DNA from: Candidatus Rubrimentiphilum sp.
GTDB lineage: Bacteria > Vulcanimicrobiota > Vulcanimicrobiia > Vulcanimicrobiales > Vulcanimicrobiaceae
Direction: 5' to 3'
Assembly: GCA_035710515.1 (NCBI GenBank)
Contig: DASTDE010000004.1
Location: 248,001-312,000 of the forward strand
Length of the DNA stretch: 64,000 nt
In this document: piece by piece, positions 4,207 through 37,537 of the stretch
How the letters are laid out: every line of letters starts with the position of its first letter
Position numbering within the stretch: the first letter of the stretch is position 1
The notes under the pieces: model-generated
What the model saw: only the letters and a program-made list of their open reading frames with translations
Databases searched by the model: none
Told to the model about the DNA's origin: nothing
Position numbers and translations under genes: made by a program

Positions 4207-4953
4207 CTACCGGGCGCCTGGCTCCTCTGGAGGGCACAGCACGGCGCCCACCTCGCCGATGGTTCCCACCATGGCGTCGGGCGGGGAGGCGCCCTCGGGG
4301 ACCGGTTCGCCCCGCAGATTCATCCAGACGGTGTAGAGTCCAGCCTCGATGGCGCCGGCGATATCGCGCTCGTAGCGGTCCCCCACCATCGCGGCCGCAG
4401 CCGGCTCCACCCCGAGTTTTTCACAGGCATGCGCAAAGAGCCGGGGATCAGGCTTCACCATGCCGACTTCGTCCGCCAAGAAAATCGCATCGAAGTAGTC
4501 GCTGACTTCAAGAAGGGCGATCTTCTCACGGTGCGTCTCCGAGACGCCGTTGGTAACCAGACCGAGTTTGATTCCGGCCGCCCTGAGTTGCTTGAGCAGA
4601 TCGAGCGCGCCCGGAAAGAGCGCGAAGTATTTCGCGCGGTAGCGGTTGTAATTCGTCGCGCTGCGCTCGGCGAGCACAGGATCGTCGAGTCCGACCGAAC
4701 GCAGCGCTGATCCCCAAAGCCGGGAGCGCAGCGAGCTCAACTTGCTAACCAGCAACTCATGAACTTGCTCGGCGGTGAGCTTCTTCCAAAATCCTTCGGC
4801 TTCGGCGATATACGCATCTTTGAGGGCCAGCGCATCGACGCCGTGCTCCGCCGCGATTTCGTGCGCAACCTCATCGGCCGCGCTCGTGAACGCGAGCGTA
4901 TCGTCGTGCAGCGTGTCGTCAAGATCGAAGAGCACGGCCCGCAGCTCACGCAT
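4207..4953 (-). CDS. HAD-superfamily hydrolase (subclass IA)
   Basis: Cytoplasmic phosphatase-like enzyme of 248 residues with all four HAD motifs. Motif I is FDLDDTLHD at residues 9-17, with the nucleophile Asp and the acid/base Asp two residues later. Motif II is the Thr of LVTNG, motif III the Lys of MVKPDPRLF, and motif IV is VGDRYERDI with the magnesium-binding Asp. A helical cap domain lies between motifs I and II. Overall it resembles YjjG/pyrimidine-nucleotidase-like members, but the substrate cannot be read from sequence. It overlaps the 3' end of the alpha-mannosidase gene by eight bases, suggesting co-transcription. Confidence 0.93.
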   Translation of the reverse strand: MRELRAVLFDLDDTLHDDTLAFTSAADEVAHEIAAEHGVDALALKDAYIAEAEGFWKKLTAEQVHELLVSKLSSLRSRLWGSALRSVGLDDPVLAERSATNYNRYRAKYFALFPGALDLLKQLRAAGIKLGLVTNGVSETHREKIALLEVSDYFDAIFLADEVGMVKPDPRLFAHACEKLGVEPAAAAMVGDRYERDIAGAIEAGLYTVWMNLRGEPVPEGASPPDAMVGTIGEVGAVLCPPEEPGAR

Positions 4954-7408
4954 TGCGGAATTTTACGCGGAACGAACGCAATTGATAGGGCGTCAGATCG
5001 AATGCCAAGTGCTCGCCATCGATCGCGACCGGCATGCCGATGGCGCGCTCGAGGCCGTCGACCGAGTGCACCGCCGTCATGCGTGCGCCGCAGCGCAGCC
5101 GAACCGTTCGCGCCGAACCGTCACATTCGCGAACCCGCACGACGGCGCCGTCGCCATCCTCCGCCGGCTTGCATGCCACTACCAGCACGCTTTCGTCCTC
5201 GCACGTAAATAGCCGCACGCGCTGTTCGTGCGCGAACTGCGACCACGTTCGCTCGAGCCGGCCGATCGTAGCGTCCGCGACCGGCGCGAAAGCGTATGAA
5301 ATGAAATGCTCGCCGAGATCGGCGCCGGGATCGGGCCATGTCGTGCCGCGCAGCAGCGAGTGGCCAAGGGCGATCTGCTTCTCGCTCGCCAGCGCGCTCC
5401 AGCCGTACGTGTCCAGCGCAAACATCGCGACGCCGTCACCGTTTGCGTCCTCCGCCAGCGCAAAGCGCTGGCCCGGAACTTCGAACTTCGCGCGTTCCTG
5501 CGGCGTGTTTCGCAGCGCGGTGCGGACGATCGAGCCGTGCGGCGAGCCGTACGTTACGGTCTCTGTCTCGAGCGCGAAGCGGTTCTCTAGTCGGAGCAGC
5601 GTGCGCCGCTCGCGCCAGTCAAGCGCGAGAATCACGCGCAGATACGGCTCGTTCGGGCGCAGTTCAACGCGCATGGTGGCCGGCGACATTCCGATCTCGT
5701 AGTCTATGGACAGCCCACCGCCTTCGACGCGCACGCCGCCGGCGCGATGGATGCGCATCGTGGTTTGATAGCCGTCATCGATGTTCCAGGCTTCCCATTG
5801 GCGCGGCCGGTCGACGTACGTCGCGAGCACGTTAGCTTCAACGCAGACGTTTCGGCGGCCGGCGAGTTTGAGTTCGGTGACGGCGCCGTCCTTTCGCACG
5901 CGCGCCTGCAGCAAGCCGTTGTCGAAAAGATAGTCGCCGCAGCTTTCCACCGGCTCGCACGGTTCCGCCGGCCACGTGCTTGGCGCGCGCGGCAAGATCG
6001 ACTCGGCGGAGCCGATGACGCCCGCCACAAGTTCTTGCGCCTGAATGTACTCGCCGGCAACGTCCGCATAGACCGGCGCGATCGATGTGCCGGGCAAGAC
6101 GTCGTGAAACTGATTGCGCAGTACGATCTCCCACGCCGCGTGCAAACGTTGCCCGAATTGCTGCGTCGCGGCCGCGGGCGCATGTACCGCGTCGCACCAG
6201 ACCACCAGCTCTTCGGCTTCGGAGATCGCACGCTCCAAGAGTGCGTTCTGGAATTTTACGTCGTGATGCGTCGTGTAGACGCCGCGATGGTATTCGAGGT
6301 AGAGTTCATCTTCATGCGCTGGAAGATCGCTGCGCTTCGCTTCCAGCTCGGCGAACCAATCGCGTGGGCGAATCCATCGGCCGAACTCCGGTACCTGTTG
6401 CAACATCTTCGCAGTGACGCCGCCCCCGCCGTCGCCGTAACCGACGATCAGCGGTTCGTGCCGTTCGCGGGCCGTGCCGATGCGCCATGGATACGGCCCG
6501 CCGTCATACGACTGGATCAGCGCGCCGATCACCGCACTGCCGTCGGGTCCTTTCCATAGGAACTGCGGATACGGAAAACGCGTCGTGTCGTTCCACTGCA
6601 GCTTCGTGGTCGCAAAATAGGGGATGCCGGCGTGCGCGAGCAGTTGCGGCAGCGTGTTGGCGAAACCGAACGTGTCCGGCAGCCACGCAATCGACGGCGT
6701 AGTCGCAAAACGTTCCTTGCAATATTCGTTCGCGAACAGCATCTGCCGCAGCAGCGATTCGCCGGAGGGAAGATTGCAGTCGCTTTCGACCCACAGCGCG
6801 GCGATGTCCGGATCGAACCGGCCCGTTCCAACCTCCGTTCGTACGCGAGCAAAGAGTCCGGGATCGCTTTCCTCGACGAAACGATAGAGCTGCGGCTGGC
6901 TCTGGGTAAAAACAAACGCCGGGTCGCGATCGAGCAGATCGCACGCGATTGCGAACGTCCGCTCGGCTTTACGCCGCGTCGCTTCGTACGTCCACAACCA
7001 CGCGACATCGAGATGCGAGTGACCGATGACGGGGAGTGCGTCTTCAGCGCCCCTCGTTACCTCGGGGTCCTTCGATACCTCAGGATGACAATCAACAAAG
7101 CGTTGTGGACGTTGGTGCGAGCTCGCGTTGAGAAACCACCAAATTAGTCCCGGGCCCGAGGGCAAACCGTTGGTCGGCAGCGCCTCGAGTTCGACCTCGA
7201 GCGTCAGCTCGCGCGCGCGATCCGAGGGCGGAAGCAGCACGTCGTGGTGCTCGCGATCGTAAGCGCCGGCGGCAACGCCGTCCACACGCAGCAGCGCGCC
7301 GGTTCGCGTGCGGTACGAGATGGAAGTTGCCTGCGGCTGCGGCGGCAGCAGTGCGCGCAGCTCGGTGATTTCGGGTCCTCGCTTACCTTCTACCAGTCTT
7401 AGGCGCAG
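4946..7408 (-). CDS. GH38 alpha-mannosidase
   Basis: Glycoside hydrolase family 38 enzyme that releases alpha-linked mannose through a zinc-dependent retaining mechanism. The zinc-binding motif HSHLDVAWLW and the nucleophile region (WVESDCNLPSGES, Asp in the middle) are clear, followed by the helical bundle and beta-rich C-terminal domains. The frame stays open upstream to 7597, but that part lies inside uvrB and reads as an overlap shadow. Between the uvrB stop and recognisable N-terminal sequence there is no ATG, GTG or TTG; a CTG at 7408-7406, five bases after a GAGG, is the best start (820 residues). The first canonical codon, a GTG about 36 residues further on, would cut conserved-looking sequence. 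About 110 residues in, just before the zinc motif, an interspersed repeat is read in frame. No signal peptide is seen, so it probably acts in the cytoplasm. Confidence 0.9.
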   Translation of the reverse strand: MRLRLVEGKRGPEITELRALLPPQPQATSISYRTRTGALLRVDGVAAGAYDREHHDVLLPPSDRARELTLEVELEALPTNGLPSGPGLIWWFLNASSHQRPQRFVDCHPEVSKDPEVTRGAEDALPVIGHSHLDVAWLWTYEATRRKAERTFAIACDLLDRDPAFVFTQSQPQLYRFVEESDPGLFARVRTEVGTGRFDPDIAALWVESDCNLPSGESLLRQMLFANEYCKERFATTPSIAWLPDTFGFANTLPQLLAHAGIPYFATTKLQWNDTTRFPYPQFLWKGPDGSAVIGALIQSYDGGPYPWRIGTARERHEPLIVGYGDGGGGVTAKMLQQVPEFGRWIRPRDWFAELEAKRSDLPAHEDELYLEYHRGVYTTHHDVKFQNALLERAISEAEELVVWCDAVHAPAAATQQFGQRLHAAWEIVLRNQFHDVLPGTSIAPVYADVAGEYIQAQELVAGVIGSAESILPRAPSTWPAEPCEPVESCGDYLFDNGLLQARVRKDGAVTELKLAGRRNVCVEANVLATYVDRPRQWEAWNIDDGYQTTMRIHRAGGVRVEGGGLSIDYEIGMSPATMRVELRPNEPYLRVILALDWRERRTLLRLENRFALETETVTYGSPHGSIVRTALRNTPQERAKFEVPGQRFALAEDANGDGVAMFALDTYGWSALASEKQIALGHSLLRGTTWPDPGADLGEHFISYAFAPVADATIGRLERTWSQFAHEQRVRLFTCEDESVLVVACKPAEDGDGAVVRVRECDGSARTVRLRCGARMTAVHSVDGLERAIGMPVAIDGEHLAFDLTPYQLRSFRVKFRNA
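7051..7090 (-). repeat. Interspersed repeat inserted in frame within the alpha-mannosidase gene
   Basis: On the minus strand the segment reads TGTCATCCTGAGGTATCGA and onward, closely matching the copy downstream of the lipoprotein at 36.6 kb (TGTCATCCTGAGCCTGTCGA). Within the mannosidase it encodes CHPEVSKDPEVTRG, placed between the N-terminal domain and the zinc motif HSHLD. It holds two short direct repeats (CGTTACCTC and CGATACCTC on the plus strand) 18 bases apart. The recurrence of an intergenic-type repeat inside a coding frame is what marks it as an insertion. Confidence 0.7.
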
Positions 7409-7415
7409 CGCGGCC

Positions 7416-9452
7416 TCACACGAGTTCTTTGAGCGCGTGCTCGAAAATCTTCGGAGCCTTTCCTTGAAAGAGCATGGACTCGTTTCCGCCGATTTGCCGG
7501 CGCAACTCGATAAGCTCGTCGCGCAGCGCCGCGGCCTTTTCGAATTCCAGATTCGCCGCGAATTCGCGCATCTTCTTGTCCAGATCGGCGGCCACACGAA
7601 TGGCTACGTCGCGCGGCAGTTTTTCCCGCCGCAGTTCGAGCTGGGTCTCCTCGGTCGCGCCGGCCATCGAAAGAATGTCGCGGATCTCTTTGCGTACGGA
7701 CTTCGGTTCGATGCCGTGCGCGAGGTTATGCGCGACCTGCCGTTCGCGCCGCCGCTGCGTCTCGCCGATGGCCCGCGCCATCGACTCGGTGACCGCATCG
7801 GCGTACATGATGACCTTGCCCTCAACGTGGCGGGCGGCGCGCCCGATCGTCTGGATGAGCGAGGTTCCGCTGCGCAAGTAGCCTTCTTTGTCGGCGTCCA
7901 GGATGCCGACCATCGAAACCTCCGGCAGATCGAGTCCTTCGCGCAGCAGATTGATGCCGACAAGCACGTCGAAGGCGCCCAAGCGGAGGTCGCGCAGAAT
8001 CGCTACGCGCTCGAGCGTGTCCACCTCGCTGTGCAAGTAGCGCACCTTGAAACCCATCTCCAGCAAGAAGTCGGTCAAGTCTTCGGCCATCTTCTTGGTG
8101 AGCGTCGTGACCAGCACGCGCTCTTTGCGTTCCACCCGCAGCCGGATCTCTTCCATCAGGTCGTCCACCTGATTGCGCGTCGGGCGAACCTCGACTTCCG
8201 GATCCACCAAGCCCGTCGGTCTGATAATCATCTCGACGACCTGCGAGCTGCGTCCCCGCTCGTACGTTCCGGGCGTCGCCGAAACGTAGATCACCTGATT
8301 GATGTGCTGATCGAACTCTTCATAGGTGAGCGGACGGTTGTCGAGCGCGCTCGGCAATCGAAAGCCGTGTTCCACGAGCGACTCTTTGCGCGAACGGTCG
8401 CCGCCGTGCATGCCGTGCACTTGCGGCAGCGTGACGTGCGATTCGTCTACAAAGAGCAGCCAGTCTTTCGGAAAAAAATCGAGTAGACAGGTCGGCGTCG
8501 ATCCCGGCTCGCGGCCGGAGAGCGGCCGCGAATAATTTTCGATCCCGTTGCAGTAGCCGACCTCACGCAGCATGTCGAGATCGTACCGCGTGCGCATCTC
8601 CAAACGCTGCGCTTCGAGCAGCTTTCCGTTCTCTTTAAAATATTTCAGGCGCTCGGCCAGCTCGTCTTCGATCGAAACGATCGCACGGCGCAATTTTTCG
8701 TCCGGCGTAATGAAATGCTTGGCCGGAAAGATCGTCAGCGAATCCTTGCTCTCAACGTACTCGCCGGTGAGCAGGTTGACCACGTTGATCGCTTCGACCT
8801 GATCGCCGAAGAACTCGAGGCGATGCACCAACTCCTCATCCACGCCAATGAACTCGAGCGTGTCGCCGCGGACGCGGAAGGTGCCGCGCACGAGGTTCAG
8901 GTCGTTGCGGCGGTACTGCATGTCGACCAGCTTACGCAGTAGCGCGTCGCGGTCGAACTCGTCGCCGACGGCGATCTTCTGGGAGAGCTCCATGTAGTCC
9001 GAAGGCGATCCCAAGCCGTAGATGCACGAAACCGAGGCGACGATGAGCGTATCGGGCCGCGTCAGCAGCGACTGCGTGGCCGAATGGCGCAGGCGCTCGA
9101 TCTCGTCGTTGACCGAGCTGTCCTTTTCAATGTACGTGTCGGTGTGCGCGATGTACGCTTCGGGCTGATAATAATCGAAGTACGAGACGAAAAACTCGAC
9201 CGCGTTTTCGGGAAAGAACTCCCGGAACTCCGCGCATAGCTGCGCGGCCAGCGTTTTATTGTGGCAGAGCACCAACGTCGGCTTCTGCGCGATCTCGATC
9301 GTCCGCGCCATCGCCATCGTCTTGCCGCTGCCGGTCACGCCGAGCAGCGTCTGCGTGCGATCGCCGGCGCGAACGCTCGCGCCCAAGGCCTCAGTCGCCG
9401 CCGGCTGGTCGCCCGCAAGGCTGAAGGGTGCGACCAGTTTGAATTTGCCCAC
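7416..9452 (-). CDS. uvrB: Excinuclease ABC subunit B (UvrB)
   Basis: Helicase-like damage-verification subunit of nucleotide excision repair. Walker A is GVTGSGKT, the beta-hairpin region reads [10 protein letters not shown], and the DEAD-box-like motif is DESHVTLPQ. Helicase motif VI (QTIGRAARH) and a C-terminal UVR domain that contacts UvrC and UvrA (residues about 630-665) are present. The frame extends upstream to 9506, but the family normally begins at the FKLVAPF segment, so I place the start at the GTG at 9452 (678 residues). It is divergent from prs, with only about 80 bases between start codons, so the promoters probably overlap. It is the first gene of the minus-strand run ending in uvrA. 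Confidence 0.97.
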
Positions 9453-36620: not shown

Positions 36621-36655
36621 CTCGATAGCGTGCGGGCCTCGGCAAGCTCGGCCGC

Positions 36656-36725
36656 CCTTCGTCCTTCGACAGGCTCAGGATGACATGGCGTTTCGCTAAA
36701 GGCGAAACGCTAGGCTCAGGATGAC
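36656..36725. repeat. Interspersed repeat with hairpin and partial second copy
   Basis: GTCCTTCGACAGGCTCAGGATGAC (36661-36684, quoted as two parts: GTCCTTCGACAGG then CTCAGGATGAC) is followed by a perfect hairpin GCGTTTCGC-TAAAG-GCGAAACGC and a second partial copy ending CTCAGGATGACA. A related copy lies inside the GH38 gene. The second partial copy supplies the last codons and TGA stop of the PstS-like gene on the minus strand. Confidence 0.75.
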
Positions 36726-37537
36726 ACGTCCCCGACCGGGATGAACTTTAGCCGCCGCAAGAGCGCGCGGTCGTTCTTCACGTAATCGATGAATCCAGCC
36801 ACCTTCGCGCCCGGCTGTCCGTTCGTGAACATGTGCTCGTACGACCAGTACGGGTACTTGTTGCTCTCGACGTTTGCGTCGGTGGGTGCGACCCCGTCAA
36901 TTGACACGGCTATCTGCCTGCCCGGCGTAACATAAGCCGTTCCAACGTAGGAGATAGCGCCCGGCGTTTGCGCAACCATCGTCGCGACCGTGCCCGACGA
37001 ATCTTGCGTCATGCCGCTCTCCGACGGCTCCCGGCCCCCAAGAACTTTTTGCACAAGGACTGCCCGCGTTCCCGAACTGCGCGGCCGGTTGATGATCGTG
37101 ATCGCGGCGTCGCGGCCGCCGGCCTGACGCCAATTCGTCATCTTGCCGCTGAAGATCGCGCGAATCTGCGCGCTGGTGAGATTCTTCACTCCGGTCTGCG
37201 GATTCACGACGATCCCGAACGTAACGACGGCGACCTGATGATCGACCAGACTCGGCTGATCGGGCGCGGCAATATCCGAATCGCCGATATCGACCGCTCG
37301 CTGCGTCACCTGCGTGATGCCGACGCGCGAGCCGCCGCCCGCGACGCTGATTTTCACGTCCGGCCGGGCGTTTTGATAGTCAACCGCGGCCTGTTTGACC
37401 AGCGGCAACAACGCGGTCGAACCGGCGATGACGATTGAGCTGGTGTTCGTCTGGGCTGAACAGCCCGCAATTGCGAGCGCCGCCAAAAGCATAACGGTCT
37501 TCGAAAACATGGAGCGAGAGTACCGGATTGGGGTCAC
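36716..37537 (-). CDS. PstS-like phosphate-binding lipoprotein
   Basis: Periplasmic substrate-binding protein of the phosphate ABC transporter type (273 residues). The lipobox is LAIAGCSAQ. The mature N-terminus SSIVIAGSTALLPL, AGGGSRVGITQV, the DIGDSDI segment and RPRSSGTRAVLVQKVLGG are characteristic of PstS/PBP-like-2 proteins that bind phosphate. Start is GTG at 37537, which overlaps the upstream hydrolase stop (GTGA) and follows a GGAGG site; an internal ATG at 37510 is possible. No pstCAB genes are in the window, so it is an orphan here and could act in signalling. Its stop lies in a repeat element. Confidence 0.88.
   Translation of the reverse strand: MTPIRYSRSMFSKTVMLLAALAIAGCSAQTNTSSIVIAGSTALLPLVKQAAVDYQNARPDVKISVAGGGSRVGITQVTQRAVDIGDSDIAAPDQPSLVDHQVAVVTFGIVVNPQTGVKNLTSAQIRAIFSGKMTNWRQAGGRDAAITIINRPRSSGTRAVLVQKVLGGREPSESGMTQDSSGTVATMVAQTPGAISYVGTAYVTPGRQIAVSIDGVAPTDANVESNKYPYWSYEHMFTNGQPGAKVAGFIDYVKNDRALLRRLKFIPVGDVSS

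What the first reader, a model, noticed from the sequence alone, without database searches (positions are those of the whole stretch)
7051..7090. Interspersed repeat read in frame inside the GH38 gene
The nucleotide motif TGTCATCCTGAG-TCGAAGGA found in an intergenic repeat at 36.6 kb is also present within the mannosidase, coding for CHPEVSKDPEVTRG just before the zinc motif. This parallels Rickettsia palindromic elements, which insert in frame in genes.
Basis: partly seen in the sequence, partly recalled or inferred. Interest (0 to 1): 0.55.

Follow-up and report, generated by a model that had tools for sequence, protein, structure and literature searches.

The report
Hairpin DNA repeats inside protein genes
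A short hairpin-forming DNA repeat, present in more than a hundred copies in this bacterium, sits in reading frame inside about two dozen of its protein genes, including essential ones, where it is read as an extra loop; such repeats are known in Rickettsia, but this is an unrelated, poorly known phylum.

Summary
Window 7049-7090 (minus strand) is a 42-nt copy of a genome-wide repeat, read as CHPEVSKDPEVTRG 8 residues before the GH38 motif GHSHLD. The genome holds 113 exact TGTCATCCTGAG against 0 for the reversed control. Homologues of other genera lack these residues (13 of 13); all 7 genus genomes carry repeat material there, each different. The repeat is two successive hairpins with strong covariation (107 of 116 complementary, shuffles at most 84). 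Of 114 copy clusters, 26 lie in frame inside genes, among them ValRS, DNA polymerase III alpha, LigA, UvrC, MutS2, RadA, Dxr, RF3, NuoG. The phylum is Candidatus Eremiobacterota. The comparison with Rickettsia palindromic elements is sound: RPE-4 and RPE-6 are CGTC-tagged REPs (PMC3733652), which this element resembles (TGTC tag, no Y1 transposase), though it fails three described features of that class. Best reading: a REP-like non-autonomous hairpin element, tolerated in genes only where it is in frame, stop-free and in a loop. How it spreads is unknown: no Y1 transposase in any of 7 genus genomes. New variant of a known kind.

The parts
7049..7090 (-). Intragenic repeat copy (42 nt = 14 codons), read CHPEVSKDPEVTRG inside the GH38 gene
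   Evidence: Sequence; genome-wide copies; absent from 13 of 13 homologues of other genera
7068..7085 (-). First hairpin: TCCT-GA-G-GTAT-C-GA-AGGA (4-bp stem, facing GA steps, inner G-C, 4-nt loop)
   Evidence: Pattern list; stem covariation across 116 copies of the genome, 107 complementary
7050..7067 (-). Second hairpin: CCCC-GA-G-GTAA-C-GA-GGGG
   Evidence: Pattern list; T-A 35, C-G 21, others 2 of 58 copies
4946..7447 (-). GH38 alpha-mannosidase gene that carries the insert (start codon not settled; the UvrB ORF upstream ends at 7416)
   Evidence: Pfam; orthologues in relatives; ORF list
7007..7024 (-). GHSHLD motif, 8 residues downstream of the insert
   Evidence: H143, H145, D147 invariant in alignment A1; translation. 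That it binds zinc is recalled GH38 knowledge
36635..36726 (-). Copy at 36.7 kb: half unit TGTCATCCTGAG with a spacer, then TCCTGAGCCTGTCGAAGGA and GGCCGAGCTTGCCGAGGCC; its first TGA ends the neighbouring minus-strand ORF
   Evidence: Sequence; stop-codon scan

Best explanation
It is one copy of a short, non-autonomous, hairpin-forming interspersed repeat of the REP kind (TGTC/CGTC-tagged) that has multiplied in one genus of Candidatus Eremiobacterota. Copies lie mostly between genes; those that land in genes survive only when the total length keeps the frame, the frame has no stop and the site is a loop or linker, so that the DNA hairpin becomes a tolerated hydrophilic peptide. In GH38 the repeat occupies the linker just before the catalytic motif in the whole genus, and its contents have since been exchanged, multiplied in tandem or trimmed in each species. 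Shown: the repeat, its covariation, the in-frame insertions, the empty sites in relatives. Inferred: neutrality of the peptides, loop location beyond GH38 and the three proteins aligned to solved structures, and spread as a single-stranded hairpin by an enzyme or process not identified here.
For: 113 exact copies, control 0; 75-209 copies of TGTCATSSTGAG in each of the 7 genus genomes, controls 0-1. Stem covariation 107 of 116 against a shuffle mean of 69 and maximum of 84 in 10,000; second hairpin 56 of 58 paired. 26 of 114 clusters in frame inside genes, with Pfam families around or on both sides of the insert in most. Unit spacings inside genes are multiples of three in 9 of 9 cases, elsewhere in 17 of 38 (Fisher 0.0025). 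Inserts seen against solved homologues for ValRS (1gax), a glutamate-semialdehyde-aminomutase-like protein (3k28) and RadA (5lkm), and against empty orthologous sites in the genus for the HemL-like protein, LigA, RadA and UvrC. The GH38 insert is a low-confidence coil in the model.
Against: Single-strand folding energies are no better than shuffles for four of five copies (z 0.31, 0.29, -0.71, -0.03; the fifth -2.10), so pairing rests on covariation. In GH38 of this genome the net length gain over other genera is only 0-3 residues, so the copy took the place of linker residues instead of being simply added. No expression data. Three described features of CGTC REPs are not met.
Confidence: 0.82

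Rival explanations
1. The residues are an ordinary, conserved part of the GH38 linker and the DNA likeness to the other repeat is chance.
For: With 2 mismatches the motif is not beyond chance within the window; the linker in this genome (28 residues) is about as long as in other genera (25-28).
Against: 113 exact 12-mers against 0 control in the genome; the copy is 42 nt with both hairpins perfect; 13 of 13 homologues of other genera lack it.
Confidence: 0.02
2. The repeats are REP elements moved by a Y1/HUH transposase of the RAYT kind, as GTAG REPs are.
For: Hairpin with a 5' tag, many interspersed copies, orientation correlated with local GC skew (97 of 150 copies on the G-rich strand, Fisher 0.00013), as a replication-linked single-stranded mechanism would give. 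One relative, G042, has both 21 copies and 3 PF01797 matches.
Against: PF01797 found in 0 of 7 genus genomes and in none of the other copy-rich genera G015, G016, G043, G051; other relatives that have it carry few repeats, e.g. G048 2 copies, G057 1. Tag is TGTC, not GTAG. Of ten genes lying between copies, eight have ordinary Pfam families and two none.
Confidence: 0.1
3. The intragenic copies were selected for a function, for example tuning repair enzymes, as was suggested for REP-carrying repair genes.
For: 6 of 24 hit genes are replication or repair genes (UvrC, MutS2, RadA, LigA, ATP-dependent ligase, DnaE) against 0 of 50 control genes (Fisher 0.0007); the same bias was reported in PMC3733652.
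Against: Contents of a site differ between species and are absent in some, which argues against a conserved function; the rest of the list is general housekeeping; the control is small and was drawn after the list was known.
Confidence: 0.08

Closest known systems
Rickettsia palindromic elements (RPE), especially RPE-4 and RPE-6 of R. conorii
   Same: Short palindromic repeats inserted in frame in unrelated protein genes, DnaE and Uvr genes among them (PMC3733652, sections read; PMC10969869, passages). RPE-4 and RPE-6 are CGTC-tagged, this one TGTC/CGTC.
   Different: Here 42-81 nt instead of about 150 bp; several open frames and both orientations are used; host is Eremiobacterota; different contents at the same site across a genus.
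CGTC-tagged REP super-family (Di Nocera, De Gregorio and Rocco 2013, PMC3733652)
   Same: Tag CGTC or TGTC next to a stem-loop; complementary stem changes; no dedicated transposase; intragenic copies with a bias to repair genes.
   Different: Outer A-T pair mostly missing, no CCA tail, head-to-tail neighbours predominate instead of head-to-head dimers; a second hairpin follows directly; phylum not among the five listed in the paper.
GTAG REPs with RAYT transposases
   Same: Hairpin interspersed repeats, sometimes intragenic (PMC3733652).
   Different: No GTAG tag and no Y1 transposase in the genus.

Membership tests
CGTC-tagged REP super-family | Unpaired tag CGTC (TGTC or CCTC in many) at one end | tested here: met
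   TGTC 49, CGTC 2, AGTC 2 of 53 intact first hairpins
CGTC-tagged REP super-family | Stem of 8-9 bp whose first two positions are complementary A-T pairs | tested here: not met
   Outer A faces C in 48, T in 4, G in 1 of 53; the paired part is 4 bp, then facing GA steps and an inner G-C. The paper's figure of consensus sequences was not visible
CGTC-tagged REP super-family | Short unpaired tail, mostly CCA | tested here: not met
   No CCA among the 8 commonest next three bases, which cover 52 of 53; a second GAG follows within 2-8 nt in 57 of 68
CGTC-tagged REP super-family | Head-to-head dimers predominate, head-to-tail negligible | tested here: not met
   Neighbours within 120 bp: 49 same orientation, 4 inverted with tags outside, 0 with tags inside
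CGTC-tagged REP super-family | No associated transposase gene | tested here: met
   PF01797 in 0 of 7 genus genomes; no transposase family among 10 flanked genes, two of which have no Pfam match. Other transposase families were not searched
Rickettsia palindromic elements | In-frame insertion into many unrelated protein genes | tested here: met
   26 of 114 clusters, 24 genes
Rickettsia palindromic elements | About 150 bp palindrome coding a conserved peptide (as described in PMC10969869) | tested here: not met
   42-81 nt in the copies measured; several peptides by frame and orientation
GTAG REP / RAYT | GTAG tag and a Y1 transposase in the lineage | tested here: not met
   Tag TGTC; 0 of 7 genus genomes with PF01797

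The most novel reading that the evidence does not exclude
These hairpins spread without any transposase, as patch DNA copied from elsewhere in the genome when breaks or gaps are repaired. That would explain why some gene copies take the place of native codons instead of adding to them (81 nt for about 30 in the HemL-like gene; net gains smaller than the element in RadA and GH38), why there is no Y1 enzyme in the genus, why half units stack head to tail, why orientation follows GC skew, and why the same permissive loops hold different repeats in sister species.
Probability: 0.15. Interest if true: 0.75.

Novelty: new variant of a known kind. Interest (0 to 1): 0.52.

Why it matters
It shows that in-frame hairpin repeats are not confined to Rickettsia and the other lineages described: a genus of Eremiobacterota has them in about two dozen mostly housekeeping genes, with sister species showing empty, filled and differently filled versions of the same site. 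That makes two open questions testable: how transposase-less CGTC-type REPs spread, and whether the reported excess in replication and repair genes is real. It also warns annotators that CHPEVSKDPE, VMVSLSNHPEQR and PSIPQDD segments in predicted proteins are repeat-derived.

Tried and rejected
Chance likeness in the window: rejected by whole-genome counts. RAYT-driven spread: PF01797 absent from own genome and genus. A flanking mobiliser gene: ten genes between neighbouring copies gave ordinary families (8) or none (2). Rfam: no match in the window. Unusual folding energy: not seen in four of five copies. Two automatic in-gene hits were dropped as native sequence (L052:7209, DUF1501; L085:12855, TonB-type) before the count of 26; L086 (ORF 4352-5236) is kept but doubtful, being only weakly PurS. 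Two ORF frames that mirror a real gene on the other strand (L049 minus, L104 plus) are not counted. My first gene caller misplaced the GH38 copy as intergenic because it picked too long a start; counts come. Literature: exact-sequence searches listed papers on other subjects only, by their titles; 'Eremiobacterota' with 'repetitive' and 'palindromic' and with 'interspersed repeats' gave 0 papers; the 8 papers holding the title of the CGTC paper were listed, and in RepRanger (PMC12306157, passages) 'Eremiobacter', 'intragenic' and 'GTCAT' have 0 occurrences. PMC6006769 and PMC10969869: passages only.

Full report
What is there. The minus strand of window 7049-7090 reads TGTCATCCTGAGGTATCGAAGGACCCCGAGGTAACGAGGGGC. 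It lies in the GH38 alpha-mannosidase gene (Pfam PF01074 5.5e-59 and three further GH38 domains) and is translated CHPEVSKDPEVTRG, then AEDALPVIGHSHLDVAW. The same motif stands twice at 36.7 kb. In the whole genome (2,541,139 bases, 5 contigs) there are 113 exact TGTCATCCTGAG and 0 of the reversed pattern, and 55 copies of TCATCCTGAG-N0-14-TCGAAGGA against 0. The window on its own, with two mismatches allowed, would not have shown this (4 against 2.63 expected).

Which organism. A locus of palsa_1523 (L150) aligns to this genome at 84% over 4.2 kb.

Anatomy. I took 58 stretches around listed copies; with the window they hold 106 of the 113 exact copies in 519,150 bases. A full copy is TGTCAT plus two consecutive hairpins: TCCT-GAG-loop-CGA-AGGA and CCCY-GAG-loop-CGA-RGGG (or GGCC, GCCC, CCGC versions). 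The stem bases covary: CC with GG, CG with CG, GG with CC; 107 of 116 are complementary, against a shuffle mean of 69.2 and a maximum of 84 in 10,000. In the second hairpin T-A occurs 35 times, C-G 21 times, others 2. Four-base stems around GAG...CGA number 275 against 26-81 for 12 of 13 control triplet pairs; one control, GCG...CGA, gave 236, perhaps from nested hairpins, which I did not test. Loops are mostly 3-5 nt or 21-30 nt, the long ones with an inner hairpin. Folding energies are ordinary in four of five copies; the case for pairing is the covariation. The facing GA steps, each between a pyrimidine and a purine, suggest sheared tandem G-A pairs; this is inference from recalled DNA-structure knowledge. 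Half units (TGTCATNNTGAG plus a few bases) are often stacked head to tail, mostly 15-23 nt apart.

In genes. I grouped sites into 114 clusters and asked which lie in an open frame with coding signal on both sides. After dropping two native look-alikes and counting mirror frames once, 26 clusters in 24 genes remain: GH38, RF3, UvrC, DUF993, ATP-dependent DNA ligase, a HemL-like aminomutase, a NUDIX protein, MutS2, DNA polymerase III alpha, a protein without Pfam match, hydantoinase A, RadA, FadB (two inserts), methionine gamma-lyase, LigA, PurL, a doubtful PurS-region ORF, a CO-dehydrogenase flavoprotein, QueG, Dxr, LuxE, ValRS, an S9 peptidase and NuoG (two inserts) (some short names are mine from the Pfam families). 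By my own count of the peptides, forward frames give 11 CHPE-type and 5 VILS/VMVS-type, reverse frames 9 PSIPQDD-type and 1 LRMT-type; the reverse frame that is least hydrophilic for the commonest loop is rare (9:1, p 0.02). Spacing between stacked units is a multiple of three in 9 of 9 gene cases and 17 of 38 others (p 0.0025). Twelve copies supply the TGA stop of a same-strand ORF.

Comparison with relatives. GH38: 13 of 13 homologues of other genera have a short unrelated linker; 7 of 7 genus genomes, this one included, have repeat-derived DNA there by my reading, but with different stems, frames and unit numbers, e.g. VMVSPSN-VIVSPSN-VMVSLSNHPEQR in G006. The net gain in this genome is only 0-3 residues. 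LigA: filled differently in G000, G004, G005, G006; empty in G001, G002 and in 10 of 10 homologues of other genera; not found in G003. ValRS: repeat in G000, G002, G005; other or short contents in G001, G004, G006. HemL-like: repeat only in G000, where 81 nt stand in place of about 30 nt that six relatives keep as GxGGxQ. RadA: only G000 of 6 genomes with a match. UvrC: G000 and G004 of 6, in different versions. Solved homologues lack the inserts: 1gax, 3k28, 5lkm. An AlphaFold2 model of GH38 (13 sequences, mean pLDDT 83.4, pTM 0.84) puts the insert (residues 120-133) at the end of strand 117-122 and in the coil before strand 138-143, with residues 125-133 under pLDDT 50. Surface exposure was not measured.

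Mechanism. Shown: repeat, pairing by covariation, frame-keeping insertions, empty and differently filled sites. Not shown: how it moves. Y1 transposases (PF01797) are in 0 of 7 genus genomes and 15 of 60 relatives; the copy-rich G015, G016, G043 and G051 have none, while G042 has 21 copies and 3 matches. Orientation follows local GC skew (52:36 in loci with positive skew, 17:45 in the others, p 0.00013); copies in clusters are not independent and the replication origin is unknown, so this is a lead. Ten genes between neighbouring copies are ordinary (8) or without Pfam match (2).

Repair genes. Six of 24 hit genes act in replication or repair. Fifty genes drawn by position from 20 other stretches of the genome contained none by Pfam, five of them having no match at all at the threshold used; Fisher p 0.0007. 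PMC3733652 reported the same excess in other phyla. My list was known before I read that paper and before the control was drawn, the control is small, and hit genes look generally housekeeping, so this is suggestive only.

Known or new. PMC3733652 (text up to the methods and conclusions read; figures not held) defines CGTC-tagged REPs, places RPE-4 and RPE-6 among them, finds no transposase, and lists intragenic copies. Ours has the tag but not the outer A-T pair (4 of 53), the CCA tail or the head-to-head dimers, and comes from a phylum not on its list. So it works like a CGTC REP or RPE, but I do not file it as a member of one of the four published families. In the collection sample intragenic copies are rarer: of 142 matches in 119 stretches, 10 frame cases in 8 loci lie deep in long open frames, 5 of the 8 loci not titled Eremiobacterota.

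Noticed in passing
G015:C1:68592-69634 (relative): Array of 8 TGTCATCCTGAG copies spaced 57-59 bp on one strand followed by 4 copies spaced about 60 bp on the other; a regular inverted array of the repeat.
   Followed up: no
L070:2432-3766 (minus): HemL-like protein of this genome lacks the GxGGxQ segment that all compared orthologues of the genus keep; the repeat stands in its place, so this paralogue may be altered in function.
   Followed up: partly
L082:3074-5191 (minus): LigA carries an internal repeat insert and its stop codon is supplied by a second copy.
   Followed up: partly
L171, L183 (CAMDMO records titled Rickettsia typhi): A MAG named Rickettsia typhi carries the 24-mer pattern, while PMC3733652 found no CGTC repeats in R. 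typhi; the name may be wrong.
   Followed up: no
L059:10703-10780 and L060:2906-2990 (positions on the copy's strand): Stacks of three to four half units TGT(C/G)AT-NN-TGAG with near-identical spacers before one full hairpin; the first units have no partner half.
   Followed up: partly
own-genome stretches L047-L104: Orientation of copies correlates with local GC skew (52:36 against 17:45).
   Followed up: partly
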